A stretch of 64,000 nt of DNA from Athalassotoga saccharophila. Its GTDB lineage: Bacteria > Thermotogota > Thermotogae > Mesoaciditogales > Mesoaciditogaceae. How positions within the stretch are numbered: the stretch's first letter is position 1; each line of letters starts with the position of its first letter. Location of the stretch: contig NZ_AP019551.1 in assembly GCF_009936215.1 (NCBI RefSeq), forward strand, positions 1,016,708 through 1,080,707. Reading direction: 5' to 3'. Shown in pieces: positions 15,640-32,740 of this stretch. Below the pieces are notes generated by a model. It worked only from the letters and a program-made list of their open reading frames with translations, ran no database searches and was not told the origin of the DNA. The translations under genes were made by a program, and so were the position numbers.

Positions 15640-17220
15640 TTATTGTTCTTCTCTAAATAATGGTTTTTCGAGAATGTAAAACACGACAAAAGTTGCAATG
15701 GTAAGAATAGAACCAAGTGCCTGGGCTTCTGGCACATGCATCGATGAAAATAACCTGTAGGCGCTTATCGAAATAGTTGGAAATTGGGGATTGTAAAGTA
15801 CCATAGTCGCGCTCATCTCGCCCATTGAGATTGCGAATGCGAAAAAGAAAGTAGAGATCACTTGAGGCTTTAATATTGGAATTCTTATCAACGTTAATCT
15901 CTGAAACCAGTTTGCACCGTCTACCGATGCCGCTTCATCTATCTCCTCTGGAAACCTCTGCCAGCCGGACAAAAAGGTTTGAAAACCTATTGGGAATGAA
16001 AGTATTGTGTATATCGGGATGATCTCAGATGGAAAATTAAGAGGTATCCAGTTTTGAAGTGCCAAATATCCAAATGCCAGTATCACGGGGGAAATTGCAA
16101 GAGAGGAGGTAAAAATGATATCAAAAATGGCACTCTTTATTTTGTTAACGGCGTAGGCTGAGGTTATAGATAAAATCACCGTTAGAATCGCCGACGATAA
16201 CGAGAAAATACCAGTCCATAAAATCGCGGCGATAACGGAATTTCCTATGTAAGGATTCATCCTTCCAGAGAAGAGATGATCTATCCATTCGAGCGTGAAT
16301 GTTGAATTTTGAAAGTTCCAAAATCCGGCAAATACCTGTGAGATTATTGGACCAAACACGAAGATGCTTATTCCTGCCAGATAAAGAATCCCCCACAGCG
16401 GGAATTTGAAATTTGAACGTGAAATTTCTTGCGAAAATATTCCCGCGATCTTTCTTAGAATACCAAAGATGAAGACTATCGATCCTATCAAAGCGATCTG
16501 TAAGATTGTGAGATCTATAGCCCCCTTGAAATCGATGATCGTTGTTAGATACATGTATATTTGAACTTCAATCGTTGAAAATTGGGCACCCCCTATGACG
16601 AGAACAACGGCAAAGGAGGTGAAACAATATATGAATGTCAAAATCAAAGCACTCAGTATCGATGGCAAAAGAATTGGCAATTCGATGAATAAAAAACTTT
16701 TGAATTTAGAAGCCCCGTCTATTCGAGCCGCTTCGGCATAAAGTGGATCGAGATTTGAAATAGCACTTCCAACTATCATCATTGTAAGGGGAAAGTTATA
16801 AAAAGCATTTCCCATTACAACCCCGAGAAGGGTAAAGAGTGGCTCGAATCTTACATGGAAGATTGGCCAGAGAAAATAAGAATTGAATATACCGTTATGA
16901 CCGAAAAAGGAAATAAATCCGAGAGTCATAGAAATCGAAGGCATAACAAAAGGCACCGTTGACAGGGCTGCAAATATCCCTTTGAATCTAAAGCGGGTTC
17001 TTCCCAAAAGATAAGCGCCGGGAAGGCCCATCGCAAAAGACATTAAAGTCGAAAGGAAGGCCTGATAAGATGTGAACTTGAGTATTCGAAGGTTAAGAGA
17101 ATTGAAAACAGAACTTCCTGTTTTGTAAGTATAGGCAAATAGAACTATAATGGGTAAAAGGTAAAAGACCGCCGTGAAGATCGCGGCGGGTAAAATTGAA
17201 AAAATATACCTGCTTTTCAT
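15640..17220 (-). CDS. thiP: Thiamine ABC transporter permease (fused duplicate)
   Basis: 526 residues, about 12 membrane segments in two homologous halves, each with a binding-protein-dependent permease EAA loop: EAARIDGASKFKSFLFIELP in the first half and EAASVDGANWFQRLTLIRIP in the second. This fused architecture is typical of ThiP and the related iron/putrescine permeases. It overlaps thiB by 4 bases, and both lie downstream of a TPP riboswitch, which makes thiamine (or a phosphate ester) the likely substrate. No ATPase gene (thiQ) adjoins it. Confidence 0.9.
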   Translation of the reverse strand: MKSRYIFSILPAAIFTAVFYLLPIIVLFAYTYKTGSSVFNSLNLRILKFTSYQAFLSTLMSFAMGLPGAYLLGRTRFRFKGIFAALSTVPFVMPSISMTLGFISFFGHNGIFNSYFLWPIFHVRFEPLFTLLGVVMGNAFYNFPLTMMIVGSAISNLDPLYAEAARIDGASKFKSFLFIELPILLPSILSALILTFIYCFTSFAVVLVIGGAQFSTIEVQIYMYLTTIIDFKGAIDLTILQIALIGSIVFIFGILRKIAGIFSQEISRSNFKFPLWGILYLAGISIFVFGPIISQVFAGFWNFQNSTFTLEWIDHLFSGRMNPYIGNSVIAAILWTGIFSLSSAILTVILSITSAYAVNKIKSAIFDIIFTSSLAISPVILAFGYLALQNWIPLNFPSEIIPIYTILSFPIGFQTFLSGWQRFPEEIDEAASVDGANWFQRLTLIRIPILKPQVISTFFFAFAISMGEMSATMVLYNPQFPTISISAYRLFSSMHVPEAQALGSILTIATFVVFYILEKPLFREEQ

Positions 17221-18200
17221 TTAATAACTATTTGAGTCCATTCGTTTATCCATTTTGAAAGAGAAGTTTTTATCTCTTCCATAGGTATATTAACAGTCTT
17301 TGTTATAACTGGGGCATGATCTATGAATACCTGAGGAAGAGATACATCCGTTACAGGATACATCCATTGGTTAAGGGGAACTGCGCTTTGAAAATCTTTG
17401 GAGAGCACAAAATCAATGAATTTTTGTGCAAGAGAGAGGTGCTTTGTGCCTTTCACTATTCCGGCATATTCTACCATGACATATGCTTCATCATTTGGAA
17501 TGATAACTCCTATATCAGATCCGTTGTAATAATAGTAATTGTAAGCCTCGTCAGTTGCAAAACTCACCATCATTTTGGCCTCTCCATTTTCGATCATCTG
17601 AAATGCCGTGTCCCATCCACTCGTTATAGTTTTTACAGTTGGCATAAGTTTTTGCCAGTAATCCTGCCATTTATCACCATATATCGCTATTGTCCATAGC
17701 AAAAAGTCAAGGCCCGTTGTAGAAGTTCTTGGATCCTCTATCACGAGCGTATGTGCGTATTGTGGATTCAAAAGGTCATCAAAGGTTTTTGGGGGATCCT
17801 TAAGACTTTTACTGTAATCTATCGCGAGAGCACCGTAATCGAAGGGAATTACCCTGTAGAGTGGATCTATCAAAAATGATTTGTTCACGACACTTGCGAT
17901 ATCAGTTGGCTTGTAAGAAATGAGGAGATTTTGATCGATCACTTGCGGAATCTGGCTTTGAGATAGACCAATGACAACGTCTGCTTGCGGATTCGACTTC
18001 TCAAGGATCAATCTGGCCACAAGGTTTCCACTGCTCATCGATACAAAGTTGATTTTGCAATCATACATCTTCTCGAAGATAGGCTTTATTTCATTTCCTA
18101 TCCCCGATACGAAACTGCTGTAGGTGTAAACAGTCAGAGTTTCCGAAAATCCAGCAATTGCCATCAAAATTACTATGGCAAAGATCGCGACTTTCTTCAT
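17217..18200 (-). CDS. thiB: Thiamine-binding periplasmic protein
   Basis: 327 residues with a signal peptide (MKKVAIFAIVILMAIAGFSE). The mature start LTVYTYSSFVSGIGNEIKP matches the ThiB/iron-binding SBP class. Family segments PFDYGALAIDYSKSLKDPP and DPRTSTTGLDFLLW are typical of ThiB, and NQWMYPVTD near the C terminus also fits. It is the first gene behind the TPP riboswitch. The ATG at 18200 has GGAGGTGA upstream; another ATG 4 bases earlier is in a different frame. Confidence 0.92.
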   Translation of the reverse strand: MKKVAIFAIVILMAIAGFSETLTVYTYSSFVSGIGNEIKPIFEKMYDCKINFVSMSSGNLVARLILEKSNPQADVVIGLSQSQIPQVIDQNLLISYKPTDIASVVNKSFLIDPLYRVIPFDYGALAIDYSKSLKDPPKTFDDLLNPQYAHTLVIEDPRTSTTGLDFLLWTIAIYGDKWQDYWQKLMPTVKTITSGWDTAFQMIENGEAKMMVSFATDEAYNYYYYNGSDIGVIIPNDEAYVMVEYAGIVKGTKHLSLAQKFIDFVLSKDFQSAVPLNQWMYPVTDVSLPQVFIDHAPVITKTVNIPMEEIKTSLSKWINEWTQIVIK

Positions 18201-18223: not shown

Positions 18224-18247
18224 AGACCGTCCCAAACGGAGACGGCC
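18224..18247 (-). terminator. Terminator of the TPP riboswitch expression platform
   Basis: Minus strand: GGCCGTC/GACGGTC stem (one G-U pair) with a 10-base loop, followed by TTAATTTTTT, 10-20 bases before the thiB ribosome-binding site. It is the likely off-state terminator. Confidence 0.8.
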
Positions 18248-18261
18248 AGTTTATCCTTATT

Positions 18262-18341
18262 TCCCTTCGCCAGCATTACCTGGATCAGGTTCAAAGGGTC
18301 GAGACTTTAAGCCTCCTCTCAGCCAGTTCACTGGCTCCCCG
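18262..18341 (-). ncRNA. TPP riboswitch (THI element)
   Basis: Minus strand. The 5' part reads GGGGAGCC, then the conserved pyrimidine-binding CTGAGAGG. The 3' part contains ACCCTTTGAACCTGATC and GGTAATGCTGGCGAAGGGA, the diagnostic THI-box segments for pyrophosphate binding. All core elements are intact. A terminator follows, so high TPP should stop transcription before thiB-thiP. Confidence 0.96.
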
Positions 18342-18351
18342 TTACGTATCT

Positions 18352-19607: not shown

Positions 19608-19635
19608 TTGAAATTTCAGAAATAAGTTGTATGAT
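19608..19635 (+). promoter_or_regulatory. Promoter of the lacI-type regulator and sugar operon
   Basis: TTGAAA (19608-19613), 16-base spacer, TATGAT (19630-19635). The predicted operator starts 6 bases after the -10, so a bound repressor would block initiation. The longer in-frame extension of the regulator upstream of 19675 would run through this promoter and is therefore not coding. Confidence 0.62.
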
Positions 19636-19641
19636 TTTGTG

Positions 19642-19655
19642 TGGAATCGGTTCCA
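19642..19655 (+). promoter_or_regulatory. LacI-family operator 1
   Basis: TGGAATCGGTTCCA, a palindrome with a central CG, the usual shape of a LacI/GalR-family site. It overlaps the predicted transcription start of the regulator gene, pointing to autoregulation. A near copy lies at 20673-20686. Confidence 0.72.
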
Positions 19656-19674
19656 TAAAGAAGGTGAAGATAAA

Positions 19675-20694
19675 TTGAAAACGACGATAGATGATATTGC
19701 AAAAATGGCTGGAGTATCTAAATCAACCGTATCACGTGCACTTAATGGTACCGGTTACATTTCAAAAGATAAAAAGAAAAAAATACTCGAACTCGTGAAA
19801 CTCCACAACTATGTTCCGGATTCGAAAGCCGTAAATCTGAGCAAGAAAAAAACTATGACAATCGGACTTGTCTTGCCTTCGGTAACTGGCCCTTTTTATG
19901 GAGAGGTAATCCAGGGAGTCGAAGAGGTGCTAAGCGAGAACAAATATTTCACACTTTTTATGACTTTCGAATCGAATTCTCCAGAAAAAAACCGCGAAAG
20001 ATATTTATCTCTCATGAGTTCTGGAAGGATCGATGGAATAATAATTTTTGATCCACAGGTAGACAGTCAGACCGTTGAAAAAGTTACAAAATTTGAAATT
20101 CCTGTGGTATATCTTGGAGAAGATGTCCATGGATCGGATGTAATTTTAGTTGATAATTTTAGCGGCGCATATTCGATGACAGAACATTTGATAAAGATCC
20201 ACAAACACGAAAGAATCGCATTTATAACCGGGCCTGCGAAAAGTTTCGACAGCGTCGAAAGGCTTCGCGGATACAAATTTGCCCTTGAAAATAATGACAT
20301 TGAATTCGATCCAAGTCTTGTGTGCCGTGGAGATTTTACAAAAGAAAGTGGTAAAAATGCAGTCGAGAATTGCCTCAAAAACGGTGCGACGGCCATTTTT
20401 GCCGCCAACGATGAAATGGCCCTCGGAGTCATAGAAGAATTAGAAAGAAAAAGAATAAAGGTTGGGAAAGAAATCGCCGTCGTTGGTTTTGACGATACAT
20501 TCTGGTCAAGGTACATTCAACCACCTTTGACGACAGTACATCAACCCATGCACAGTATCGGAAAAATGGCGGCAAAGACGATTCTCGACAGGATAAATTC
20601 AAAAGATCTCGTTAAATCTCCCATGAGAATTGTTTTGAGCACAAGGCTGATCGTGAGAAATTCATGTGGTTGTGAAACCGATTCCACAAATTGA
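19675..20694 (+). CDS. LacI-family transcriptional regulator of the sugar operon
   Basis: About 339 residues. The N-terminal helix-turn-helix plus hinge reads TIDDIAKMAGVSKSTVSRAL; the periplasmic-binding-like sensor domain follows (TIGLVLPSVTGPFYGEVIQG). TTG start at 19675 with GGTGA 7 bases upstream; the longer frame crosses the promoter and operator. The C terminus has an unusual Cys-Gly-Cys pair (NSCGCETD). It probably represses itself and the ABC transporter/glucan-degrading genes that follow and is released by an oligosaccharide. Operator-like sites lie before its start and inside its last codons. Confidence 0.93.
   Translation: MKTTIDDIAKMAGVSKSTVSRALNGTGYISKDKKKKILELVKLHNYVPDSKAVNLSKKKTMTIGLVLPSVTGPFYGEVIQGVEEVLSENKYFTLFMTFESNSPEKNRERYLSLMSSGRIDGIIIFDPQVDSQTVEKVTKFEIPVVYLGEDVHGSDVILVDNFSGAYSMTEHLIKIHKHERIAFITGPAKSFDSVERLRGYKFALENNDIEFDPSLVCRGDFTKESGKNAVENCLKNGATAIFAANDEMALGVIEELERKRIKVGKEIAVVGFDDTFWSRYIQPPLTTVHQPMHSIGKMAAKTILDRINSKDLVKSPMRIVLSTRLIVRNSCGCETDSTN
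20673..20686 (+). promoter_or_regulatory. LacI-family operator 2, inside the end of the regulator gene
   Basis: TGAAACCGATTCCA reads as TGGAATCGGTTTCA on the minus strand, one base different from operator 1. It lies in the last codons of the regulator and 22 bases before the first transporter gene, so it could act as a second operator or a transcription roadblock. Confidence 0.65.
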
Positions 20695-20708
20695 AAGGAG
20701 GAAGTTTT

Positions 20709-22409
20709 ATGAAGAAGGGTTTGACACTTTTGATTTTTTCGATCATTTTGATCGGTGCCGTAAGTTTTGGATTGGCACAATCTACAACACAGGGCCCTGC
20801 GATCGTTAACTGGGGAAATGTCAAATACGGGGGTACCTTAAATGTGGTTATGCCATGGGGACAATTGACAAATAGCGTCAATCCATTTTTGCCTACTTCT
20901 CAGACTTTGCAGATGCAAAACATGATTTATGAAAGTCTTTTCTATGTCAACAGTTTGACTGGCCAACTTACACCCATGCTCGGAACATCTTACAAATGGT
21001 CAGACGATAACCTAACCCTTACAGTTACAGTTAGAAAGGGAGTCAAGTGGTCTGACGGTACGCCATTTACAGCCAATGATGTTGCTTTCACGTTTAACCT
21101 GATCAAAAAATATCCGGCACTCGATTTGGGATCATTGTGGGCCAAAGACAATTACCTTCAAAGCGTTGTTGCAAGCGGTGATAACGTGATCTTCACCTTC
21201 TCGAAGCCAAATACGCCTTTACTTTACGCATTGCTTGGACAACTCATAGTTCCAGAACATATATGGTCAAAGTTATCAGATCCTGCGACATATCCAAATC
21301 AGAATCCAGTTGGAACTGGTCCGTTCTTGCTTGATTCTTTCAATCCAACGACCAACACTATAACGCTTGTAAAAAATCCAAATTACTGGATGGTAGGAAG
21401 ACCTTATATAGACAAAATAGTCGTGAGATCAGTTGAGTCCAATACTACGGTAATGCTTGAATTGCTAAAAGGCACGGCGGACTGGAGTTATGTCTATATT
21501 CCTGACGTTCAAAAGACATGGGTGGGCAAAAATCCGGCCGTTAACAAGATATGGTGGCCGATGAATAGCACGTTGATACTTTATCTGAACACGAGAAAGT
21601 ATCCTTTCGATAATCCAGTCTTCAGACAGGCAATATCGATGGCAATAGACAGATCAGCGGCAGAAGAAAAGGCCTATTTCAACGCTGGAGGTCCTTCAAG
21701 CGCCATCGGAATACTTCCGGCCCAGCAGTCCGAATGGCTCGATCCGACTTTGACAGAATTGAATGTTTCTCTTGCGCAGTACAATCCAAAAGCGGCACAG
21801 GAATTACTCGCATCGATAGGATTTAAGAAAAACGCAGATGGTAATCTCGTTGGTCCTGATGGAAAAGTCCTTCCAACTTACAAATTACCTGTCGTTGCGG
21901 GATGGACTGATTATCTAACTATTTCTCAGATAATATCCCAAAACCTTAAAGAACTCGGCATAAACACGATAATAGATCAGGAATCATTCGGATCATGGTG
22001 GTCAACAATAACAAAGGGAATGTACGACATGGCCTTTGCGTGGGCAACGGGAAGCGGTCCGACTCCTTACTTCTATTTTAACCAGGAACTCAATCCATCA
22101 TTTACAGCGCCAGTTGGACAAACATCATCTTCTAACTGGTCTGGATATACCAATCCTCTGATAACGGCCGCATTGAATACCTATTCGCAAACAAGCGATA
22201 TGCGCCTTCAGAAGCAGGCCATGTACACCATAGAGAGGATCTTTGTACAGGATATGCCATTTGTTCCTGTCGTTTACGGAACAGAATTTGATGTCTTTAG
22301 CGAAAATAATTTCACCGGATGGCCTTCCGAGTCTCATCCTTACGCGACCGGTGCAGGTATAGGATCGGCTGAAGGCGAAATGATCGCTTTGAACGTGCAT
22401 TTGAAATGA
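20709..22409 (+). CDS. Family 5 solute-binding protein (peptide/oligosaccharide type)
   Basis: About 566 residues with a signal peptide (KKGLTLLIFSIILIGAVSFG). The body is SBP_bac_5: YGGTLNVVMPWG, the family motif VRKGVKWSDGTPFTANDVAFTF and NPVGTGPFLLD. In Thermotogota this class often binds oligosaccharides rather than peptides. No matching DppB/C permeases adjoin it; the permeases downstream belong to the family 1 system. It is the first gene after the regulator, so it is an orphan receptor sharing that control. The ATG at 20709 has AAAGGAGG upstream. Confidence 0.93.
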   Translation: MKKGLTLLIFSIILIGAVSFGLAQSTTQGPAIVNWGNVKYGGTLNVVMPWGQLTNSVNPFLPTSQTLQMQNMIYESLFYVNSLTGQLTPMLGTSYKWSDDNLTLTVTVRKGVKWSDGTPFTANDVAFTFNLIKKYPALDLGSLWAKDNYLQSVVASGDNVIFTFSKPNTPLLYALLGQLIVPEHIWSKLSDPATYPNQNPVGTGPFLLDSFNPTTNTITLVKNPNYWMVGRPYIDKIVVRSVESNTTVMLELLKGTADWSYVYIPDVQKTWVGKNPAVNKIWWPMNSTLILYLNTRKYPFDNPVFRQAISMAIDRSAAEEKAYFNAGGPSSAIGILPAQQSEWLDPTLTELNVSLAQYNPKAAQELLASIGFKKNADGNLVGPDGKVLPTYKLPVVAGWTDYLTISQIISQNLKELGINTIIDQESFGSWWSTITKGMYDMAFAWATGSGPTPYFYFNQELNPSFTAPVGQTSSSNWSGYTNPLITAALNTYSQTSDMRLQKQAMYTIERIFVQDMPFVPVVYGTEFDVFSENNFTGWPSESHPYATGAGIGSAEGEMIALNVHLK

Positions 22410-22414
22410 ATTGG

Positions 22415-22436
22415 GGCAGGGTCTATCCTGCCTTTT
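22415..22436 (+). terminator. Short hairpin with T tract between two solute-binding-protein genes
   Basis: GGCAGG/CCTGCC with a 6-base loop followed by TTTT. Likely a partial terminator or mRNA end that makes the first binding-protein gene more abundant than the rest of the operon. Confidence 0.6.
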
Positions 22437-22456
22437 CTCGATGGGAGGAATGATTT

Positions 22457-23713
22457 ATGAAAAAGTATCTTTTCGTTTTTTCTATGATTTTGATCTTAAT
22501 CGTTGGATCGGCGATGGCAGTCACCATAACTATTGCACCACCAGATGCGCAATCTTTTAACTACCTTCAAAGTGTGATCCCGATCTTCCAAAAACAAAAT
22601 CCGGACATAACCGTTCAGGTAGTGGCCCAACCAAGTGGCGGTCAGATAGCGGCACTTGTCGCGGCAGGCAATGCTCCGAATATATTCATAGGGCCGGTTT
22701 CGATGAATTACGTTCAAAATGGCCTTCTGCTCGATTTTACCAAAATGCCGGGATACGATAAGATAGCTTCTGAACTCATAACCGGTATTTTCCCTTACAA
22801 TGGTGGAGTTTACAACATACCTTGGATGGTAACGACACAGGTGATGTTTTACAACAAAACGATCTTTAAACTTGCAGGACTTAACCCGGATAATCCGCCA
22901 AAGACCTTTGCCGAATACCTTTACGATGCAAAGAAGATAAGTGAACTCCCGCCCGGTCCTTACGGAAAATACTACGGTCAATTTTTCTGGAATGAGATGC
23001 TTCAATATTCTTGGTATTGGGGTATGTTAGAACAGATATACTACAACTTCAACGATGCAAAATATCCTCATTTGATAGGTGAATATGGTCTTTCACTTGA
23101 ATTTACAAATCCCGATGCACATTTCGTAGATTTCTTGAAATTCTGCAAGGAGGCCCAACAATACAGTCCATCAGGCATGCAGCAGGCTTCTATTTTTGGA
23201 AGAAACGTTGGAATGTGGCTTCAATTCGCCTATGGGTGGACCTTTAACCTTCAAAATTCAACGGGAGGTCCTATGGTTTACGGTAAAGATTATGGCCTTG
23301 CTCCGATACCCACAAATTCGGATTCTGCAACGGCCATTCACTGGTCTACCCTTGCTCAAAGACCTTTGATAGTTTTCAAATCAACGCCACAAAAGGATTT
23401 AGGGGCATGGAAGTTCATCCAATTCTTAATGGAACCACAAAATGAACTTCAAGCGTGCGAAGAGATAGGATGGCTGCCGTCCGTCAAAGAGAACGCAAAT
23501 AATCCATTCTTCATGAAACCGGATGTGAAACCTTACGTTGATCAACTTGCTCATGTTATCGTTACGAACCCATTTGAGCAAAACTCCGGAGTTACCCAAG
23601 CCGTTTTAAACGCATGGGGTCAATACGTTGTCAACAATTCAATTCCAACGGCCGAGCAGGCTCTCCAGATAGCAGCAAAAAATGCCCAGGCCGCTTTGAG
23701 TTCGGGATTATGA
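22457..23713 (+). CDS. Family 1 sugar-binding protein of ABC importer
   Basis: 418 residues with a signal peptide (KKYLFVFSMILILIVGSAMA). SBP_bac_1 features: IPIFQKQNPDITVQV, YNIPWMVTTQVMFYNKTIF, and a C-terminal AWKFIQFLMEPQNE. It should deliver an oligosaccharide to the two permeases that follow 4 bases later. GGGAGGAATG precedes the ATG. Confidence 0.94.
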   Translation: MKKYLFVFSMILILIVGSAMAVTITIAPPDAQSFNYLQSVIPIFQKQNPDITVQVVAQPSGGQIAALVAAGNAPNIFIGPVSMNYVQNGLLLDFTKMPGYDKIASELITGIFPYNGGVYNIPWMVTTQVMFYNKTIFKLAGLNPDNPPKTFAEYLYDAKKISELPPGPYGKYYGQFFWNEMLQYSWYWGMLEQIYYNFNDAKYPHLIGEYGLSLEFTNPDAHFVDFLKFCKEAQQYSPSGMQQASIFGRNVGMWLQFAYGWTFNLQNSTGGPMVYGKDYGLAPIPTNSDSATAIHWSTLAQRPLIVFKSTPQKDLGAWKFIQFLMEPQNELQACEEIGWLPSVKENANNPFFMKPDVKPYVDQLAHVIVTNPFEQNSGVTQAVLNAWGQYVVNNSIPTAEQALQIAAKNAQAALSSGL

Positions 23714-23717
23714 GGTC

Positions 23718-24620
23718 ATGAAGGATTTTCTAAGAACACTTAAAAGATCCAAATGGGGCTACATCTTTGTAGCCCCTTGGATCGTTGGTTTTTTGGTTTT
23801 TAGCGTCTATCCTTTATGGCTTGGAATAAAGATGACCTTTTTGAATTACAACCTTGTGGCGCCGCAGTCGATAAAGTTTGTTGGATTCCAAAACTGGATA
23901 AATGGATTTATAGATCCGCTTTTTTGGAAAAGCATTGTCAATATCCTTTACAATCAGGCGATATTCATAATTTTAACCTTCTTTGTCGCTTTACTTGTAG
24001 CCTATTTGCTCTTCAAAATTTCTAATGGGAATAAATTCTGGAATGCGTTTTTCAGAAGTGCTTATTTTGTACCGACTATAACCTCAGTTGTTGTTGTGAT
24101 GCTTGTGCTCGGAAATATAACCGCTCCCTATGGCCCCATTCAATCTTTGCTTGTTAAATGGCATATTTTAAGTCAGCCAATAGTGTGGAATTTAACGCCG
24201 ATACTCATAATGCCCGTTATAGCGGTCATAACCTCATGGATGTCCTTCGGAGTTCAGGCGATAATCTTGCTTGGCGGAATGGGTACAATACCGACCGAAT
24301 TCATAGAAGCGGCAAGAATAGACGGGGCAAGAGAAGGTACTATTTTCTGGAGAATAATCTTTCCGCTTTTAAGGCCACAGATAGTATTCATAATGGTCAT
24401 GAACGCGATAGGAGGGCTTCAGATGTTCACCCAAGTTTACGTGAATTTTGGTGTCACGGGAGGGCCGGATCAGGCCGGAATGACTCCTGTGCTTTACATA
24501 TATGACGAAGGGTTGAGTAAATTTCAGATGGGATATTCGTCAACACTCGGTTTTATTCTCAGCATTTTGATAATCATAGCAACGGTCATAACGCTTAAAG
24601 TTCTTCAGGAAAGAAATTAG
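23718..24620 (+). CDS. Sugar ABC transporter permease, MalF/UgpA type
   Basis: 300 residues, six membrane segments. N-terminal APWIVGFLVFSVYPLWLGIK is typical. The EAA loop that contacts the ATPase reads EAARIDGAREGTIFWRIIFP (about 195-214). It pairs with the next gene. A perfect 9-bp hairpin (23755-23776) lies inside its first codons. Confidence 0.95.
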   Translation: MKDFLRTLKRSKWGYIFVAPWIVGFLVFSVYPLWLGIKMTFLNYNLVAPQSIKFVGFQNWINGFIDPLFWKSIVNILYNQAIFIILTFFVALLVAYLLFKISNGNKFWNAFFRSAYFVPTITSVVVVMLVLGNITAPYGPIQSLLVKWHILSQPIVWNLTPILIMPVIAVITSWMSFGVQAIILLGGMGTIPTEFIEAARIDGAREGTIFWRIIFPLLRPQIVFIMVMNAIGGLQMFTQVYVNFGVTGGPDQAGMTPVLYIYDEGLSKFQMGYSSTLGFILSILIIIATVITLKVLQERN

Positions 24621-24628
24621 GTGATCAA

Positions 24629-25456
24629 ATGCTAAAGCAAGAAAGAAGAGAAAGAACAAGGGCATACATTCTCTTAAGTATAGGACTCATAATAACTCTT
24701 TATCCATTCGTTCTGATGGTTATGAGTTCATTCATGACTCCATCACAACTTTTGAACAATCCGTCGATGATAATTCCTATGCCATGGACGTGGTCTGGAT
24801 ACACCGGGCTTTTCAAAGATCTTGACGTTTTATTGCTTTTCAAAAATACCTTAATAATAGCCGGATCTGTAACTTTGCTTAACCTTTTCTTTGATTCTTT
24901 GGCCGCCTTTGCGCTTGCAAAGTTGAAGTTTCCTGGGAAAAATGCCCTTTTCGGTTTCATGCTCTTTACCTTGATGATTCCAGGTGTTCTCTTTTTCATA
25001 CCAACTTACACAATGCTCTACAACTGGGGATGGGTTAACCATTACAGGGCCCTTATAATTCCAAGTTTTGTTCAATTCTATAGCATATTCCTTATGAAAC
25101 AATTCATGGAACAAATTCCGGATGAGGTCATAGAGGCAGCCCGGATAGACGGTGCGAGTGATCCGGTTATATACGCAAGAATAATAATTCCCATGAGTGT
25201 GCCAGTTTTAGCGACGATCGCGATACTGACATTTATGGGCGCGTGGAATGACTTTTTCGGTCCTTTACTTTATTTAAGAAGTCCGAGCATGTGGACGGTT
25301 CAACTTGGTCTTCAGATGTTTTCAAGTTCGATCCCCGGCCAAAATATACAGGTGCTGTGGGCGGGTGAAGTTGTGATAACTTTGCCTATATTAATTGTCT
25401 TTTTGTTCCTTCAAAAATATTTCATCAGAGCCTTTACGAATGTCTCTTTCAAGTAG
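24629..25456 (+). CDS. Sugar ABC transporter permease, MalG/UgpE type
   Basis: 275 residues, six membrane segments, EAA loop EAARIDGASDPVIYARIIIP (about 168-187), and the C-terminal GAWNDFFGPLLYLRSPSMWT characteristic of MalG-like subunits. Starts 8 bases after its partner. No ATPase gene is in the operon, so a shared MsmK/MalK-type ATPase encoded elsewhere is expected. Confidence 0.95.
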   Translation: MLKQERRERTRAYILLSIGLIITLYPFVLMVMSSFMTPSQLLNNPSMIIPMPWTWSGYTGLFKDLDVLLLFKNTLIIAGSVTLLNLFFDSLAAFALAKLKFPGKNALFGFMLFTLMIPGVLFFIPTYTMLYNWGWVNHYRALIIPSFVQFYSIFLMKQFMEQIPDEVIEAARIDGASDPVIYARIIIPMSVPVLATIAILTFMGAWNDFFGPLLYLRSPSMWTVQLGLQMFSSSIPGQNIQVLWAGEVVITLPILIVFLFLQKYFIRAFTNVSFK

Positions 25457-25465
25457 GCGATCGAT

Positions 25466-25987
25466 TTGAAGAAAAAGATCATCCTTTACTCTGTCATTGC
25501 ATTGGTAGTTTTTGCGATCTTCTTTGCCGGATACGTTGCAGCGTGGATTCAAACGAAAGACTTTGCAGTTGAAAATTACAACAAGGCCGAAGAGGCTCTA
25601 AAGGCCGGAAAATATCTCGATGCTCTTAACGGTTACCAGATATTCGATGCCAAACTTCAAAAGTACGTAACTTATGTGGGTTTTACTCAGATTTCAACGA
25701 TGTTTGAAGACAACTCGATCTTTGGAATTCCGCCGGTTGTTGAAAAGGCCAGAAAAGAAGTTATGAAATTGATTGCCACCATGCCAACGAGCGATCTTGA
25801 GACTTACTTTCAAAACACCGTAAGAAATAGAAATCCGTACATACTTTACGTTCTGGCCGAATTAATACACAGAACATCGGATCAATCGAAGATAAGCATG
25901 TACGAGAATATCTTCTCTTTGGTTGGTGGAAAGACAAATGAAATAACGAAATATTACGATACATTACACAGGGAGGCAGGTCAATGA
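25466..25987 (+). CDS. Membrane-anchored protein of unknown function in sugar transport operon
   Basis: 173 residues: one N-terminal membrane anchor (about 5-27, IILYSVIALVVFAIFFAGYV), then a helical domain with a TPR-like stretch (YNKAEEALKAGKYLDALNGY, about 38-57). I do not recognise a family. TTG start with no clear ribosome-binding site; it probably depends on coupling to the upstream permease. It overlaps the phosphorylase by 4 bases, so its synthesis is tied to both transport and phosphorolysis. It may be an accessory to the importer. Confidence 0.75.
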   Translation: MKKKIILYSVIALVVFAIFFAGYVAAWIQTKDFAVENYNKAEEALKAGKYLDALNGYQIFDAKLQKYVTYVGFTQISTMFEDNSIFGIPPVVEKARKEVMKLIATMPTSDLETYFQNTVRNRNPYILYVLAELIHRTSDQSKISMYENIFSLVGGKTNEITKYYDTLHREAGQ

Positions 25988-28314
25988 AGTATTTCAAAAC
26001 AAAATATGGATATTTTGATGAAAATGGAGATTACGTCATAACTGATCCAAAAACTCCGATGCCTTGGATAAACATCTTAACGAATGGAAGGTATGGCTCT
26101 ATCTATTCACAAAGCGGAAGCGGATATTCCTTTTACATTGATGCATCTCAGAGTTTGCTGACAAGATGGGTTCAAGATCTCGTAAAGGATGATTACGGAA
26201 GGTACATATACATCCGTGACGATGAGACCGGCGAGATTTATTCTCCGACATTTCAGCCAGTCCAGCATAAGGGGAAGTATACCATTACCTTCTCTCCGGG
26301 AATTGTAAAATTCAACGCGAAATTCTCCAAATTCGATGTTGAGATGAATGTCACCATACCTATGGACGATGATGGAGAGGTTATAAATTTGAGTTTCAAA
26401 AACAAGGGCAAAGATAAACTTCACCTTTCTATCTTTTCATATTTTGAACTCAACATGAGCACAAATGCCGATTTCCATCGCGAATTTCACAAACTCTTCT
26501 TTGAAACCAGATTCATAAAAGATCATTCGGCCATATTAAGCAAAAAATATCTATGGCTTAACTGGAATGATTCTTATCCTTACGTTCTTGTCCATTCGAC
26601 ATCCGGAAAGGTCATTTCATTTGACACGGACAAAAGATCATTTATCGGGATGTATGGAGATATTCGAAGACCTCAGGCCGTTAAAAATGGAATTTGCGAT
26701 ATGAATCAGGACAGGCACGTGGACGGCATAAATGCCCTTCACGTCAAGATCGATGTAGATTCTCAAGATACGAGGACACTTAACTTCTTTATAGGCGTAG
26801 GCAAGAGTGAAGAAGAGGCGCTTTTGATCGCGAAAAAATACAATAAGGTCAATTTCGATGATTTAAAAGATAAAGTCGAGTCGCACTGGAAAGACTTCCT
26901 TGGTAAATTCAAAATAAGTGTTCCGGACAAAGACGTAGAATTTTTGATAAACAAATGGCTTCCATATCAGGCGATCGGTGGAAGACTTATGGCAAGAACT
27001 GCGTATTACCAGATGGGAGGTGCATATGGATTTCGCGATCAACTTCAAGACAGTCTTGCGGCTCTATGGCTTGATCCCGAGATCACAAAAAATCAAATAA
27101 AACTCCATGCTGCCCACCAAAGAAATGATGGAACGGTCCAGCACTGGTGGCTTCCTCTTACAAACTGGCACCCTTCGGAAAGGTGGTCAGACGACCTTTT
27201 ATGGCTTCCATTTGCACTTACCGAATACATATCTCATACTTCAGATACCAAAATACTCGAAGAAGAAGTTCCCTTTTTAGACGGTGGTAGCGGTACTCTC
27301 AAAGATCATGCCATAAGGAGTATAAAGAGCGTGATGTCTGCTAGATCGGAGAGAGGAATACCTTTTATATTTAACGGGGATTGGAACGATGGTCTTAACG
27401 GTCTTGGTAAAAATGGAAAAGGAGAAAGTTTCTGGGTAAGCGAATTCCTTTATTACATCCTTTCCAAAGTTCAGGAAACCTTTTCACTCAGTAAAGATGA
27501 AAAAGCATTCATTGAAAAGTCGGCAAAAGAGATCAAAGATTCATTCAACTCCTGCGCATGGAATGGAGATTGGTTTGACAGGGCTACCTCAGACGATGGA
27601 ATAGTGCTTGGCGGCAAAAATGATGACAGGATCTTTTTAAATGCCCAAAACTGGGCCGTGATATCTGAAATAAGCGACAATGAAAAATTAGAAAAGGCTA
27701 TGGAAAATGTGAAAAAAAGACTCATAACCGATTATGGTCCATTGCTTTTTACGCCACCGCTTACAAGGCCTGATCCAAAAATTGGGTACCTCAGCAGATA
27801 TTCTCCTGGATCCAGAGAAAATGGAGGAGTTTACACTCATGCGGCCGTTTGGACTTTGTGGTCTGCCTGGAAGAGAAGGGATACAAACCTTTCAGACAAA
27901 GTTTACGAATCTATTTCTCCTATAAAACGATTCGTAAAAGCGCCCGAGATATACATGGCCGAACCTTACGTAACTCCAGGTAACAGCGATGGACCGCTTT
28001 CTCCAAAGAGCGGAAGGGCTGGCTGGACATGGTATTCGGGATCGGGCGGATGGTTTTACAGATCGATAATAGAGTATTACATAGGGATAAAGCCCGTCAA
28101 AGATGGAATTCTTTTCAGACCATCGACAAGAAAGACATGGAAGAGTGCGAAATTCTCATTCACCGTAAGAGGCGGAGAATACACAGTCGAGATCGAAAAT
28201 CCAAAGATGAAAGGCCTCGACTCAAAAAGCACTATCTTTGTCGATGGAAAGAAAATAGATGGGGATCTCATACCTTATTTGAAGGGAATCCATAAAGTAA
28301 AGGTAAAATATTGA
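25984..28314 (+). CDS. GH94 glycoside phosphorylase
   Basis: 776 residues, no signal peptide, so cytoplasmic. N-terminal GH94 beta-sandwich, then an (alpha/alpha)6 barrel with GGAYGFRDQLQDSLAALW (about 341-358), HAAHQRNDGTVQHWW and the acid/base region NGDWNDGLNGLGKNGKGES (Asp in DWND). These motifs resemble the phosphorylase module of cyclic beta-1,2-glucan synthases more than classical cellobiose phosphorylase, where the equivalent region reads more like GFRDSNQD. With a GH144-like enzyme in the same operon, cleavage of beta-1,2-linked oligoglucans to glucose 1-phosphate is likely. Cellobiose or laminaribiose activity is not excluded; known beta-1,2-oligoglucan phosphorylases are longer. 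Confidence 0.9.
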   Translation: MKYFKTKYGYFDENGDYVITDPKTPMPWINILTNGRYGSIYSQSGSGYSFYIDASQSLLTRWVQDLVKDDYGRYIYIRDDETGEIYSPTFQPVQHKGKYTITFSPGIVKFNAKFSKFDVEMNVTIPMDDDGEVINLSFKNKGKDKLHLSIFSYFELNMSTNADFHREFHKLFFETRFIKDHSAILSKKYLWLNWNDSYPYVLVHSTSGKVISFDTDKRSFIGMYGDIRRPQAVKNGICDMNQDRHVDGINALHVKIDVDSQDTRTLNFFIGVGKSEEEALLIAKKYNKVNFDDLKDKVESHWKDFLGKFKISVPDKDVEFLINKWLPYQAIGGRLMARTAYYQMGGAYGFRDQLQDSLAALWLDPEITKNQIKLHAAHQRNDGTVQHWWLPLTNWHPSERWSDDLLWLPFALTEYISHTSDTKILEEEVPFLDGGSGTLKDHAIRSIKSVMSARSERGIPFIFNGDWNDGLNGLGKNGKGESFWVSEFLYYILSKVQETFSLSKDEKAFIEKSAKEIKDSFNSCAWNGDWFDRATSDDGIVLGGKNDDRIFLNAQNWAVISEISDNEKLEKAMENVKKRLITDYGPLLFTPPLTRPDPKIGYLSRYSPGSRENGGVYTHAAVWTLWSAWKRRDTNLSDKVYESISPIKRFVKAPEIYMAEPYVTPGNSDGPLSPKSGRAGWTWYSGSGGWFYRSIIEYYIGIKPVKDGILFRPSTRKTWKSAKFSFTVRGGEYTVEIENPKMKGLDSKSTIFVDGKKIDGDLIPYLKGIHKVKVKY

Positions 28315-28343
28315 TCCAAAATTCAAAATAAGGAGGGAAAGAA

Positions 28344-28928
28344 ATGAAAAAAGTAGCACTGGTTTTTTCGGCAATTTTGGTTTTAGCGATCGGAATGGCC
28401 CTTGCTCAGGTAACTTTTAATTACTACATCATAGAGCCATTCTCAAGCCCATTTGGTCACTTTGGACTTGGTCCGTGGACGGGAGGTACATCATCGGCAA
28501 CTGATGCAAGTGCACAGATAGTCTCGAGCACACTTTTTGGAAACAAATGGGACATATACTACAACGTTGAAAAAGACGGGTCTTACAACGGGACATACGT
28601 GCTTTTTGCAAATCAAAATCTGAATCAATCATTTGATGCATCTGCTTATTCTTCTTACGTCTTCTTCGCAAAGTCTGATTCATCGACACCTATAACTTTC
28701 AAGGTAGAACTGAAAAGTCCAAATAACGGCGTGGAATATTATTATGTTCGCGGCATAGGCAAGTACTGGACCTTTGTCCAGATTCCATTCAAAGATTTTA
28801 CGAAGTATTCATGGTCAAATGAAACCAATTTCTCTCAGTTAACACAGGGTACCTTTGTTTTCGAACATAATTTGGACGTCTTAAACACGGCCCATCTTTA
28901 CATTGCGGACATAGGTTTCATGAAATAA
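28344..28928 (+). CDS. Secreted single-domain carbohydrate-binding-like protein
   Basis: 194 residues: signal peptide (KKVALVFSAILVLAIGMALA) plus one beta-sandwich module of about 165 residues. The module closely matches the C terminus of the GH144-like protein encoded next: GLGPWTGGTSSATDASA, NQNLNQSFDASAYSS and KSPNNGVEYYY recur there. Probably a free-standing glycan-binding protein of CBM11/CIA30-like type; family not proven. AAGGAGGG precedes the ATG. A terminator follows at once, so it may be made in excess of the enzyme. Confidence 0.82.
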   Translation: MKKVALVFSAILVLAIGMALAQVTFNYYIIEPFSSPFGHFGLGPWTGGTSSATDASAQIVSSTLFGNKWDIYYNVEKDGSYNGTYVLFANQNLNQSFDASAYSSYVFFAKSDSSTPITFKVELKSPNNGVEYYYVRGIGKYWTFVQIPFKDFTKYSWSNETNFSQLTQGTFVFEHNLDVLNTAHLYIADIGFMK

Positions 28929-28956
28929 AGAAGGCACCGTCAAGGTGCCTTCTTTT
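28929..28956 (+). terminator. Terminator between the binding protein and the GH144-like gene
   Basis: Perfect 10-bp stem (AGAAGGCACC/GGTGCCTTCT) with a 5-base loop and a short T run, starting on the base after the stop codon. The next ribosome-binding site (GAGGTGA) starts directly after it, so read-through must supply the downstream gene. Confidence 0.82.
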
Positions 28957-28967
28957 GAGGTGATGAA

Positions 28968-30746
28968 ATGAAAAAATTCTTTGTGTTATTTCTTGCCCTT
29001 TTGATAGTAGGAGGCATCGCAATGGCTCAAGACAATCCCGATGAGATTCTTGCAAAAAATGAAAGAGATGCCGTATTTTATTTTTGGAATGAGGTAAATC
29101 CATCTAATGGACTTGTAAGAGACAGAACCACATGGGATTCTCCTTCATCGATAGCGGCCGTTGGATTTGGACTTACCTCGTTATGTATAGGTGCAGATCA
29201 CGGCTGGATTCCAAAGCAGGACGTTTACAATAGAATTCTAACAACACTTGAATACTTCAAAGATTTACCAAACGAGCATGGTTTTTACTACCACTTTTTG
29301 AATCTTTGGACTGGCCAGAGGGCAAGCGGATCAGAGGTTTCTCCTATAGACACAACACTTTTCATAGCGGGAGCACTCTTTGCAGGCCAGTATTTTCCCG
29401 GAACAGAGGTTCAAAAATTGGCAGATGAACTTTACGAGCGTATAGACTGGCAATGGATGACGAATAACACAGCCTATTTGGACATGGCGTGGTATCCCGA
29501 AAGCGGATTTTCCAAATCTTACTGGACCGGATACAGCGAGGCTGCGTTGATGTACATCCTTGCCATAGGATCTCCTACTTATCCGATATCGCCTCAAGAT
29601 TGGGGGTACTGGATAGTTACATGGTCTCAAAACGGATCTGGCAATTTGAAACACTGGGCAAGTTCAGATGAAAGCATGTTCACCTATCTTTACTCTCAGG
29701 CTTACATAGATTTCAAAGATTTGAATTTCAAATACGTTGGAAATCTATGGGACAATTCGAAGAGGGCCATAGAGTACGACATGCAATTTGCGAATGATAA
29801 TTCCCAGTACAAGACATTCAAAGAAGGCTTTTGGGGATTGTCCGCATGCGATGGACCGAATGGTTATCAGGCATATGGATCGATAACTGGAGGAATAGAT
29901 GGGACCGTTGCACCTTACGCGATGATAGGTGCGCTTCCATTCACTCCAAACAGATCGAAAGCGGCGGTTTTAAAGATGTGGGAACTTAAAAATGAACTCT
30001 ATGGCCGGTATGGATTCGTTGATGCCTTCAATCTCGATCAGAATTGGAGAGATTTCGATTACATAGGCATAGATGTCGGAATAGAGGTATTGATGACAGA
30101 GAATTATTACACTGGCATGGTTTGGAAATATTTCATGCAGATACCCTACGTTCAAAAGGCAATCGATTTGATAGGGCCAGAAGTTATAAAATCCTCCGAA
30201 GAACAGTCACAGATTGAACGATCCCAAAGTTTACAAAGCACATCGTACACGGTAGTTGAAAATTTCTCAAGTCCTTACGGAAATTACGGTCTTGGCGTAT
30301 GGACTGGTGGAACCTCTTCTCCCTCTGATGTGAATGCAAATATAGTTTCTGATGAAAAATTTGGACATGCATGGAAGATAAATTTCAACGTCCAAAAGAG
30401 CGGCGCTTACAACGGTACATGGATGGATCTTGCAAATACAAATCTTAATCAGACCTTCGATGCTTCTGGCTATTCATCTCTTGTCTTTTACGCCAAAGGA
30501 AGTTCTCAGGATATGAATTTCAAAATAGAGTTAAAAAGTCCGAACAACGGCGTTGAATATTATTACGTAAACCTCGGTAATGAGTGGACAAAGGTTGTCA
30601 TTCCTTTTGACAAAATGTCTGTTTACTCGTGGACGAAACCTGTGGACTTTTCGAAACTGATTCAGATGACCTTTGTCTTTGAAAATAACGTCGACAACGT
30701 CAAAGAAGGCACAATATACATCGCGAACATAGGTTTTTCGAAGTAA
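28968..30746 (+). CDS. Secreted GH144-like endo-beta-1,2-glucanase with C-terminal binding module
   Basis: 592 residues. Signal peptide (KKFFVLFLALLIVGGIAMAQ), then a catalytic (alpha/alpha)6-type domain (about 25-405) of the PF10091 glucoamylase-like family: VFYFWNEVNPSNGLVRDRT, PSSIAAVGFGLTSLCIGADHGW, GFYYHFLNLWTGQR, GFWGLSACDGPNGYQAYG, FDYIGIDVGIEVLM. Characterised relatives in GH144 are endo-beta-1,2-glucanases. Residues about 425-592 are the same beta-sandwich module as the preceding protein. It acts outside the cytoplasm, releasing oligosaccharides for the ABC importer. Exact linkage is inferred from family only. Confidence 0.85.
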   Translation: MKKFFVLFLALLIVGGIAMAQDNPDEILAKNERDAVFYFWNEVNPSNGLVRDRTTWDSPSSIAAVGFGLTSLCIGADHGWIPKQDVYNRILTTLEYFKDLPNEHGFYYHFLNLWTGQRASGSEVSPIDTTLFIAGALFAGQYFPGTEVQKLADELYERIDWQWMTNNTAYLDMAWYPESGFSKSYWTGYSEAALMYILAIGSPTYPISPQDWGYWIVTWSQNGSGNLKHWASSDESMFTYLYSQAYIDFKDLNFKYVGNLWDNSKRAIEYDMQFANDNSQYKTFKEGFWGLSACDGPNGYQAYGSITGGIDGTVAPYAMIGALPFTPNRSKAAVLKMWELKNELYGRYGFVDAFNLDQNWRDFDYIGIDVGIEVLMTENYYTGMVWKYFMQIPYVQKAIDLIGPEVIKSSEEQSQIERSQSLQSTSYTVVENFSSPYGNYGLGVWTGGTSSPSDVNANIVSDEKFGHAWKINFNVQKSGAYNGTWMDLANTNLNQTFDASGYSSLVFYAKGSSQDMNFKIELKSPNNGVEYYYVNLGNEWTKVVIPFDKMSVYSWTKPVDFSKLIQMTFVFENNVDNVKEGTIYIANIGFSK

Positions 30747-30860
30747 TTTGGCAATTTTCAATTTAGACCTACTCACTCTTTACTTGTCATTGTTTACCCG
30801 AGGCATCCTGCACTCAACTTACAGGTAAATGAATATTCAACTTTAGAGTGATATTTTAAT

Positions 30861-30887
30861 GCGAAGGGATTCTCCCTTCGCTTTTTT
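30861..30887 (+). terminator. Terminator of the sugar operon
   Basis: GCGAAGGG/CCCTTCGC stem (8 bp, 5-base loop) followed by six T, about 115 bases after the GH144-like stop codon and 32 bases before the IS element. The rest of 30747-30918 is non-coding and carries one copy of a degenerate intergenic motif. Confidence 0.9.
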
Positions 30888-30934: not shown

Positions 30935-31144
30935 AAAAAACAGTTTTTTGGATTTATTTGAAACTCATGTTTTAAAATTGAAAGTGGGAAATGATTAGAG
31001 TCAGTAATAGCCAAAGAAGCATTTGCTGTAACCTTGACGCACATCACAAAGATTATACCACTATTTACCGTTTCGGATAGAGTCCATTGATTTATGCCTT
31101 TCTGCTGCTATGATCTATTTGAAAAAGACAGCGGAGGTAGAAAA

Positions 31145-32740
31145 ATGGAAATCACTACAAAGCAACTTGATCACCATGGACTTGTGGCTGGGACATTTGA
31201 TAAATTTGAAATGGGAGAGGTCATTGAAAAGAGAATACCGAAAGTCCGGAACTTCAATCTTTCAACGTCTGCGATAATAAAAGCGATGATCATACTCGGG
31301 CTTGGTTTTGTTGACAGGAGATTGTACTTTGCAGGGAGTTATTTTGAGAACTGGGATGTTGAGAAACTTTTAGGCGAAGGAACTAAACCGGAAGATCTTA
31401 ACGATGACGCTCTCGGCAGAGTGCTTGACAAGATTTATGATTACGGTCCAACGGAATTATTTCAAGAGATAGCGGCGCACGCTTTGAACAAACTTGAAAT
31501 GGATGTTCACCTCGTTCACACCGATACCACAAGCGTGAGTGTAAGCGGCAATTACGAGATGGAAGACGGGACGAATGGTTTTAAGATCACCTTCGGTCAT
31601 TCGAAAGATCACAGACAGGATTTGAAACAATTCGTGATAGGGATGGTTGTAAATCAGCATGGAATGCCGATGTTTGCCAAAACATACAACGGGAACGAAT
31701 CGGATAAAGAGTCGATCAAAGAAATGGTCAAAGCAATCAGGAAGAACATTGACAAAGACAAGAAAGTCTATCATGTGGCAGACAGTGCTTTCTACACTGC
31801 GGAAAACATTAGCGAACTCAGAACAACATACTGGATAAGCCATGTGCCGTCTACGATAAAAGAGGCTGAAGAAATGCTAAATAAAGAAGTTGAATTTCGT
31901 CCGACCAAAATTGAAGGATATGAAGTGTATTCCGAAATAAGCAATTACGGCGGGATAAAACAAAAATGGATAATGGTGAATTCGAAATATCTTAAAGAAC
32001 AGGAACTGAAAACATTTGACAGGCATTTGAAAAAAAGCAAGACAGAAGCGGAAAAGTCATTGAAAAAGACTGTGACGAAAGAACGGTATTTTTGTTCTGA
32101 AGACGGAATAAACAAGTCCAGACAATGGATGGAAGCTCATCCTCTTTTCAAATACGACAAGTTTGAGATAAAGAGCGTAAGAGTCAGAACTGACGGGAAA
32201 AGAGGAAGGCCTAAAGATGGGGATCCGACGATAGAAATGTATGAAATAGATGCTGAGATAGGTCTGAATGAAGAAGCGGTTGAAAAGGCCAAAGCAAAAC
32301 TCGGAAGATTCATACTTTCAACGAACGACATTGAACTTGAAGATGAAAAAGTGCTCGAATATTACAAAAACCAGACAACGGTCGAAAGAGGATTCAGGTT
32401 TTTGAAAGACAAAAGTTTCGGAGTAAGCGATGTGTATCTGAAAAAGCCCGGACGGATTCAGGCACTTGTGATGATAATGGTATTGACGTTATTGGTGTAC
32501 TCGCTTTCGGAATGGGAAATAAGGCGCACATTGAAAGAGACAGGGCAAACATTTCCGAATCAGTTGAAAAAGCCGACAAACAGGCCGACATTCAGGTGGA
32601 TATGTCAGAACTTCATGAACATAACCGTTGTAAATGTGGTTACAGATGGGCAAACAACCACACAGATAGCGAATTTAAAAGATTTGCAGATCAAAGTGAT
32701 AAGACTTTTGGGAGTTGAATATGAAAAATATTATTTCTGA
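31145..32740 (+). CDS. IS1634-family DDE transposase
   Basis: 531 residues, IS4-superfamily RNase H-like transposase with the inserted beta-strand-rich region. Candidate catalytic residues are Asp in VHTDTTSVSVSG, Asp in HVADSAFYT, and Glu in TTVERGFRFLKDKSF, the last being the Y-R-E-K-type motif region. The open frame is uninterrupted, so the element may be active. The ATG at 31145 follows GCGGAGGT; an upstream in-frame ATG at 31094 lacks such a site. Confidence 0.94.
   Translation: MEITTKQLDHHGLVAGTFDKFEMGEVIEKRIPKVRNFNLSTSAIIKAMIILGLGFVDRRLYFAGSYFENWDVEKLLGEGTKPEDLNDDALGRVLDKIYDYGPTELFQEIAAHALNKLEMDVHLVHTDTTSVSVSGNYEMEDGTNGFKITFGHSKDHRQDLKQFVIGMVVNQHGMPMFAKTYNGNESDKESIKEMVKAIRKNIDKDKKVYHVADSAFYTAENISELRTTYWISHVPSTIKEAEEMLNKEVEFRPTKIEGYEVYSEISNYGGIKQKWIMVNSKYLKEQELKTFDRHLKKSKTEAEKSLKKTVTKERYFCSEDGINKSRQWMEAHPLFKYDKFEIKSVRVRTDGKRGRPKDGDPTIEMYEIDAEIGLNEEAVEKAKAKLGRFILSTNDIELEDEKVLEYYKNQTTVERGFRFLKDKSFGVSDVYLKKPGRIQALVMIMVLTLLVYSLSEWEIRRTLKETGQTFPNQLKKPTNRPTFRWICQNFMNITVVNVVTDGQTTTQIANLKDLQIKVIRLLGVEYEKYYF

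What the first reader, a model, noticed from the sequence alone, without database searches (positions are those of the whole stretch)
19608..30887. Candidate beta-1,2-glucan utilisation operon under one LacI-type regulator
One transcript unit combines a LacI regulator, two solute-binding proteins, two permeases, an unknown anchored protein, a cytoplasmic GH94 phosphorylase and a secreted GH144-like enzyme. GH144 members are known endo-beta-1,2-glucanases. The GH94 motifs (AYGFRDQLQD, GDWNDGLN..GES) look closer to the beta-1,2-glucan synthase phosphorylase module than to cellobiose phosphorylase. Together they describe extracellular cutting, import and phosphorolysis of a rare glucan, with no ATP spent on the phosphorylated sugar.
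Basis: partly seen in the sequence, partly recalled or inferred. Interest (0 to 1): 0.75.

Follow-up and report, generated by a model that had tools for sequence, protein, structure and literature searches.

The report
Heat-loving bacterium's beta-1,2-glucan operon
A single operon in a hot-spring bacterium almost certainly encodes the machinery to cut, import and phosphorolytically digest the rare sugar polymer beta-1,2-glucan; such systems are known, but this one uses an untested stand-alone relative of a glucan-synthase phosphorylase domain and a possible new sugar-binding module.

Summary
GH144 is firm: best solved match is the beta-1,2-glucanase XcSGL, and the proposed catalytic acid, base and clan-defining Phe and Tyr are present. 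[quoted passage not shown] This GH94 type and GH144 sit 1.4-17 kb apart in 27 Thermotogota genomes, some also with a GH35 near the GH94. Precedent exists: Ignavibacterium album has a stand-alone GH94 of this kind in a GH144 cluster, and Listeria a comparable locus. What is new is modest: distribution in thermophiles, and a CBM11-like module both free and fused to GH144. Receptor specificity and all activities are untested. New member of a known kind.

The parts
19608..19635 (+). promoter-like site TTGAAA-16-TATGAT
   Evidence: consensus match only; as many as in shuffles
19642..19655 (+). probable LacI operator TGGAATCGGTTCCA, just downstream of the -10
   Evidence: pattern TGGAANCGNTTCCA once in the 2.04 Mb genome; variants at the same place in relatives
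19675..20694 (+). LacI-family regulator (ORF opens at 19627; likely start TTG 19675)
20673..20686 (+). second operator-like site TGAAACCGATTCCA before SBP5
20709..22409 (+). secreted solute-binding protein, family 5 (solved relatives include chitin-oligosaccharide and mannoside binders)
22457..23713 (+). secreted solute-binding protein, family 1/8 (sugar type)
23718..24620 (+). ABC permease, UgpA/MalF type
24629..25456 (+). ABC permease, UgpE/MalG type
25466..25987 (+). membrane-anchored all-helical protein of unknown function, overlaps GH94 start by 4 nt
   Evidence: conserved in four relatives
25984..28314 (+). cytoplasmic GH94 phosphorylase, cyclic-glucan-synthase type
28344..28928 (+). secreted single-domain protein with CBM11-like fold
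28968..30746 (+). secreted GH144 beta-1,2-glucanase with C-terminal CBM11-like domain (30240-30743)
30861..30887 (+). intrinsic terminator-like hairpin and T-run

Best explanation
It is a beta-1,2-glucan utilisation operon. Outside the cytoplasm the GH144 enzyme cuts beta-1,2-glucan endolytically into sophoro-oligosaccharides; its own CBM11-like domain and the free copy hold the glucan near the cell. A sugar-type ABC importer (SBP1, two permeases, with a MalK-like ATPase encoded elsewhere) brings the oligosaccharides in. The GH94 enzyme removes glucose from the non-reducing end with phosphate, giving alpha-glucose 1-phosphate without a kinase step (import still costs ATP). Residual sophorose is probably split by the chromosomal GH1 beta-glucosidase. 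LacI represses the operon through the palindrome at 19642 until an oligosaccharide releases it. Shown by sequence: operon anatomy, family membership, catalytic and subsite residues, conserved gene linkage. Inferred: secretion, substrate, glucan binding, inducer, sophorose step, and which ATPase is used.
For: GH144: solved-structure matches XcSGL 211 bits, CpSGL 148, BDI_3064 134, against 54 for GH194 PgSGL3; acid E191 (=CpSGL E211), base D128 (=E142), F238 and Y300 present (roles from PMC12102758). GH94: cyclic-glucan-synthase domain 440 bits, cellobiose phosphorylase 327, chitobiose 286, laminaribiose 37; tree; Q343, A347, R611, Y684 match residues used by LpSOGP at +1/+2 (PMC5309861) and are shared with all seven synthase domains, while cellobiose phosphorylases have a longer loop with Arg, then Lys and Leu. 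Linkage: synthase-type GH94 and GH144 both in 27 of 103 genomes, 5 and 7 with one only, 64 with neither, 1.4-17 kb apart. GH35 genes lie near the GH94 in several clusters, as in the Ignavibacterium beta-1,2-glucan cluster (PMC8861115). Operator. No second GH94 or PF10091 gene in the genome, so no cyclic glucan synthase: the glucan comes from outside. One MalK-like ATPase, one GH1.
Against: No activity or binding data. Subsite comparison rests on residue numbers from a paper, with a one-residue length difference at the Gln. No SOGP, CDP, ChBP or CBAP row in the tree. The GH94-synthase join has 90/93 support only. SBP1 is not specifically close to the Listeria receptor. Fisher and binomial values ignore shared ancestry. 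No sophorose-splitting enzyme in the operon.
Confidence: 0.87

Rival explanations
1. The operon digests a different beta-glucan (cellodextrin, laminarin or mixed-linkage glucan); the GH94 is an unusual cellobiose or laminaribiose phosphorylase.
For: CBM11, the nearest fold to the accessory domain, binds beta-1,3-1,4-glucan in Clostridium thermocellum; cellobiose phosphorylases are the second-best match.
Against: Tree separation and four diagnostic positions; the characterised GH144 enzymes in the papers read act on beta-1,2-glucan (PMC12102758, PMC8861115); true cellobiose phosphorylases of Thermotoga-type genomes are a separate clade, and six of those genomes (G090-G095) lack GH144.
Confidence: 0.07
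2. The locus recycles or trims a glucan made by the cell itself (osmoregulated glucan), not food.
For: The GH94 resembles the length-trimming domain of cyclic glucan synthase.
Against: The genome has one GH94 and one PF10091 gene, both here, so no cyclic glucan synthase; importer genes and a LacI regulator are typical of sugar uptake.
Confidence: 0.04
3. Beta-1,2-glucan use is right, but the two receptors serve different sugars: SBP1 imports sophoro-oligosaccharides, SBP5 something else, or nothing via this operon. (Compatible with the best explanation; a rival only to the reader's two-receptor reading.)
For: SBP5 has no Dpp-type permease here and has seven 51-56% identical paralogs in the genome; it is missing from the same operon in G014.
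Against: It sits in the operon between LacI and SBP1 in three members of the genus, behind the second operator-like site.
Confidence: 0.45

Closest known systems
Ignavibacterium album GH144/GH94/GH35 beta-1,2-glucan cluster (IALB_1177-1187, PMC8861115)
   Same: Stand-alone GH94 described there as a homolog of the synthase C-terminal domain, GH144, sugar ABC transporter; some Thermotogota relatives also have a GH35
   Different: The window has one GH144, no GH35 in the genome, a LacI regulator at the head, an SBP5 and a CBM11-like module; IALB_1177 could not be compared by sequence here
Listeria innocua lin1838-1843 locus (SOGP, GH3, ABC transporter, LacI; PMC3960220)
   Same: LacI, ABC importer and a cytoplasmic beta-1,2-oligoglucan GH94
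   Different: Listeria uses the long SOGP type with an extra N-terminal domain plus GH3; the window uses a 776-aa synthase-type GH94 plus secreted GH144
[quoted passage not shown] NdvB/ChvB)
   Same: Best match over nearly full length, same subsite residues
   Different: Stand-alone cytoplasmic protein in a catabolic operon, not a module of a synthase
XcSGL / CpSGL (GH144 beta-1,2-glucanases)
   Same: Family, catalytic acid and base, clan-defining Phe and Tyr
   Different: Extra C-terminal CBM11-like domain; shares the Asp base and the lack of the CpSGL D135/D139 segment with XcSGL

Membership tests
GH144 | Sequence match to GH144 above other clan GH-S families | tested here: met
   211/148/134 bits to GH144 structures, 54 to GH194; no other clan GH-S family under E 0.001; PF10091 200 bits
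GH144 | General acid Glu, acidic base, conserved Phe and Tyr | tested here: met
   E191, D128, F238, Y300
GH144 | Activity on beta-1,2-glucan | not testable with these tools
   needs assay
GH94 | Supersandwich and catalytic domains, catalytic Asp, phosphate-site residues | tested here: met
   PF06165 219 bits, PF17167 308 bits; D469, Y617, H619, S685
Cyclic-glucan-synthase-type GH94 | Groups with synthase GH94 domains, apart from cellobiose and laminaribiose phosphorylases | tested here: met
   90/93, separate from clades supported at 100/99 and 100/100
SOGP (Listeria/Lachnoclostridium type GH94) | About 250-residue extra N-terminal domain and close sequence match | tested here: not met
   776 aa; LpSOGP only 73 bits with a profile, below cellobiose phosphorylase at 591
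Cellobiose phosphorylase | Arg corresponding to CgCBP R362, KEN and WLTG motifs | tested here: not met
   window has GGAYGFRD, REN, WYSG
CBM11 | CBM11 beta-sandwich fold | tested here: met
   Z 15.4, 2.8 A over 148 residues, TM 0.70, model pLDDT 67
CBM11 | Pfam CBM_11 curated cut-off | tested here: not met
   18.3 bits against cut-off 27
CBM11 | Glucan binding | not testable with these tools
   needs binding assay
Beta-1,2-glucan utilisation locus | Secreted beta-1,2-glucanase, importer and beta-1,2-oligoglucan phosphorylase under one regulator | tested here: met
   gene content conserved across Thermotogota; functions inferred from family and residues

The most novel reading that the evidence does not exclude
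The CBM11-like module, free and fused to GH144, is a new carbohydrate-binding family specific for beta-1,2-glucan, and the stand-alone synthase-type GH94 is a heat-stable beta-1,2-oligoglucan phosphorylase class distinct from SOGP (perhaps with a different chain-length limit).
Probability: 0.4. Interest if true: 0.5.

Novelty: new member of a known kind. Interest (0 to 1): 0.42.

Why it matters
It puts beta-1,2-glucan use into a thermophilic phylum where the literature searched here did not describe it, and offers probably heat-stable enzymes (endo-glucanase, phosphorylase) for making sophoro-oligosaccharides. A stand-alone synthase-type GH94 is noted in one paper but not characterised there; this set of about 30 sequences makes the class testable. 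It also raises the question of who makes beta-1,2-glucan in hot springs.

Tried and rejected
Scan of named genomes with the GH94 returned only one 91% relative, so named relatives outside the phylum were taken from plasmid records. Considered that the GH144-like gene might be GH192-194 because its top hit XCC2207 came with that paper; the paper itself places XcSGL in GH144. Considered THA_1941 of Thermosipho (cellodextrin phosphorylase) as counter-evidence; at 1,019 aa and under 12% identity to known GH94 it is not in this clade. The larger chromosomal GH3 was tested as a sophorose-splitting enzyme and judged most like beta-xylosidases. Fold search for the anchored protein gave nothing under E 0.001. 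The LpSOGP sequence could not be obtained, so its residues were compared by the numbers in the paper. PHROGs gave nothing for the two unknown proteins.

Full report
WHERE IT IS. The window lies on the 1,957,762-base chromosome of a three-contig, 2,044,999-base genome. The identification is an inference from sizes.

THE OPERON. Nine genes on the + strand, gaps -4 to 47 nt, run from LacI (start probably TTG 19675) to GH144 (stop 30746).

REGULATION. The palindrome TGGAATCGGTTCCA (19642-19655), with the central CG usual for LacI operators (established knowledge), sits 6 nt after the -10 hexamer. The pattern TGGAANCGNTTCCA occurs once in the genome. A weaker copy lies at 20673-20686, before SBP5. 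In related loci, near-perfect central-CG palindromes occur within -150/+60 of the LacI or GH94 ORF start in 23 of 53 regions, against 4.8% of random pieces of the same loci. Two main forms recur: TGxAACCGGTTxCA in several families and CTTAACCGATTAAG in family f7. This supports a local, dedicated repressor; the binomial value ignores shared ancestry.

GH144. Best solved matches are XcSGL (XCC2207, 211 bits), a structural-genomics 'putative glucoamylase' (169), CpSGL (148) and BDI_3064 (134); GH194 PgSGL3 scores 54. PMC12102758 places XcSGL in GH144 and proposes the acid (CpSGL E211), the base (E142) and a clan-defining Phe and Tyr. The window protein has E191, D128, F238 and Y300. Among 43 Thermotogota sequences, every one that is not gapped there agrees: E in 41, D in 42, F in 42, Y in 42. 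XcSGL reads Gln at the acid position because the crystal is the E239Q mutant.

GH94. [quoted passage not shown] recorded as 'putative b-glycan phosphorylase', known to me as cellobionic acid phosphorylase), cellodextrin phosphorylase (105) and laminaribiose phosphorylase (37). With a profile, LpSOGP appears at 73 bits, far below cellobiose phosphorylase at 591, so this is not an SOGP by descent; it also lacks the extra N-terminal domain. A maximum-likelihood tree of 45 sequences separates cellobiose (100/99) and laminaribiose (100/100) phosphorylases from a clade of synthase domains plus the Thermotogota set (90/93); the Thermotogota set itself is 72/69.

SUBSITES. In LpSOGP (PMC5309861) Q621, A626, R916 and Y1004 take part at subsites +1/+2, and cellobiose phosphorylase fills the +2 space with R362. 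The window has Q343, A347, R611, Y684; all seven synthase domains have the same four; T. maritima-type and other cellobiose phosphorylases read ISRGIGFRD, KEN and WLTG. Spacing from Gln to Asp is one residue shorter than in LpSOGP. Catalytic D469 and W467, R351, D352, E612, Y617, H619 and S685 also correspond. In the f9-type clusters the Ala is Gly, still small.

LINKAGE. In 103 Thermotogota genomes, synthase-type GH94 and GH144 occur together in 27, GH94 alone in 5, GH144 alone in 7, neither in 64 (Fisher 1e-13, not corrected for ancestry). In 18 of the 27 the matched domains lie 1.4-3.0 kb apart, in nine 4.8-16.7 kb. The core LacI-GH94-GH144 persists while the importer differs: SBP1 is only 22-27% identical between the window type and the f6/f7/f10/f11 type. 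In several clusters of families f6, f7 and f9 a GH35 gene lies near the GH94. A GH35 enzyme of the Ignavibacterium cluster transfers glucose from beta-1,2-linked sugars (PMC8861115). Six genomes with only the cellobiose phosphorylase type (G090-G095, one matching T. maritima in size) have no GH144.

TRANSPORT AND END STEPS. No ATPase is encoded in the operon; one MalK-like ATPase exists in the genome. SBP5 has no Dpp-type permease here and belongs to eight close paralogs. No cyclic glucan synthase is present, since the only GH94 and PF10091 genes are these. The last disaccharide may go to the GH1 enzyme; the larger GH3 resembles beta-xylosidases.

ACCESSORY PROTEINS. The 194-residue protein and the GH144 C-terminal domain are 58% identical. 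A model (pLDDT 67, pTM 0.72) matches CBM11 best (Z 15.4, 2.8 A over 148 residues, 19% identity), ahead of CBM30-type folds, and also the N-terminal domain of the GH144 enzyme BDI_3064 (Z 11.4). Pfam CBM_11 is below its cut-off. Binding beta-1,2-glucan is a guess. The anchored protein is helical with one N-terminal membrane helix; no fold match was significant.

VERDICT. A beta-1,2-glucan utilisation operon, well supported by inference, ordinary in concept, with an uncharacterised phosphorylase class and a possible new binding module.

Noticed in passing
window 18244-18351 (-), with 15640-18200 (-): TPP riboswitch upstream of a binding protein and fused permease on the - strand: probable thiamine importer.
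   Followed up: no
window 31094-32740 (+): IS1634-family transposase directly after the operon's terminator.
   Followed up: no
own genome, e.g. G000:C1 154325-163297, 1585711, 1631213, 1682002: Eight family-5 binding proteins (window's SBP5 and seven others 51-56% identical to it); none of the seven Dpp-type permease genes found lies beside them. An orphan-receptor expansion that may share one permease.
   Followed up: partly
L094 8553-14713; L082; L095: Three relatives keep LacI, GH94 and the importer but lack GH144; in L094 a CBM9 domain resembling the GH144 C-terminus of relatives remains next to GH94. They may live on oligosaccharides released by others.
   Followed up: partly
L083 6575-15535 and equivalents in L085-L093: Conserved cluster genes of unknown role: a DUF5696 protein, an NHL/Yip1 membrane protein and a binding protein with a long N-terminal extension.
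   Followed up: partly
L067 3579, L079 9792 and relatives: GH144 proteins of 1000-1364 aa carry repeated N-terminal domains without a Pfam match and a C-terminal CBM9 in place of the CBM11-like domain.
   Followed up: no
L108 1-3954: A family-5 binding protein followed by a NagZ-like GH3 and a beta-lactamase-like protein, resembling a cell-wall recycling set.
   Followed up: no
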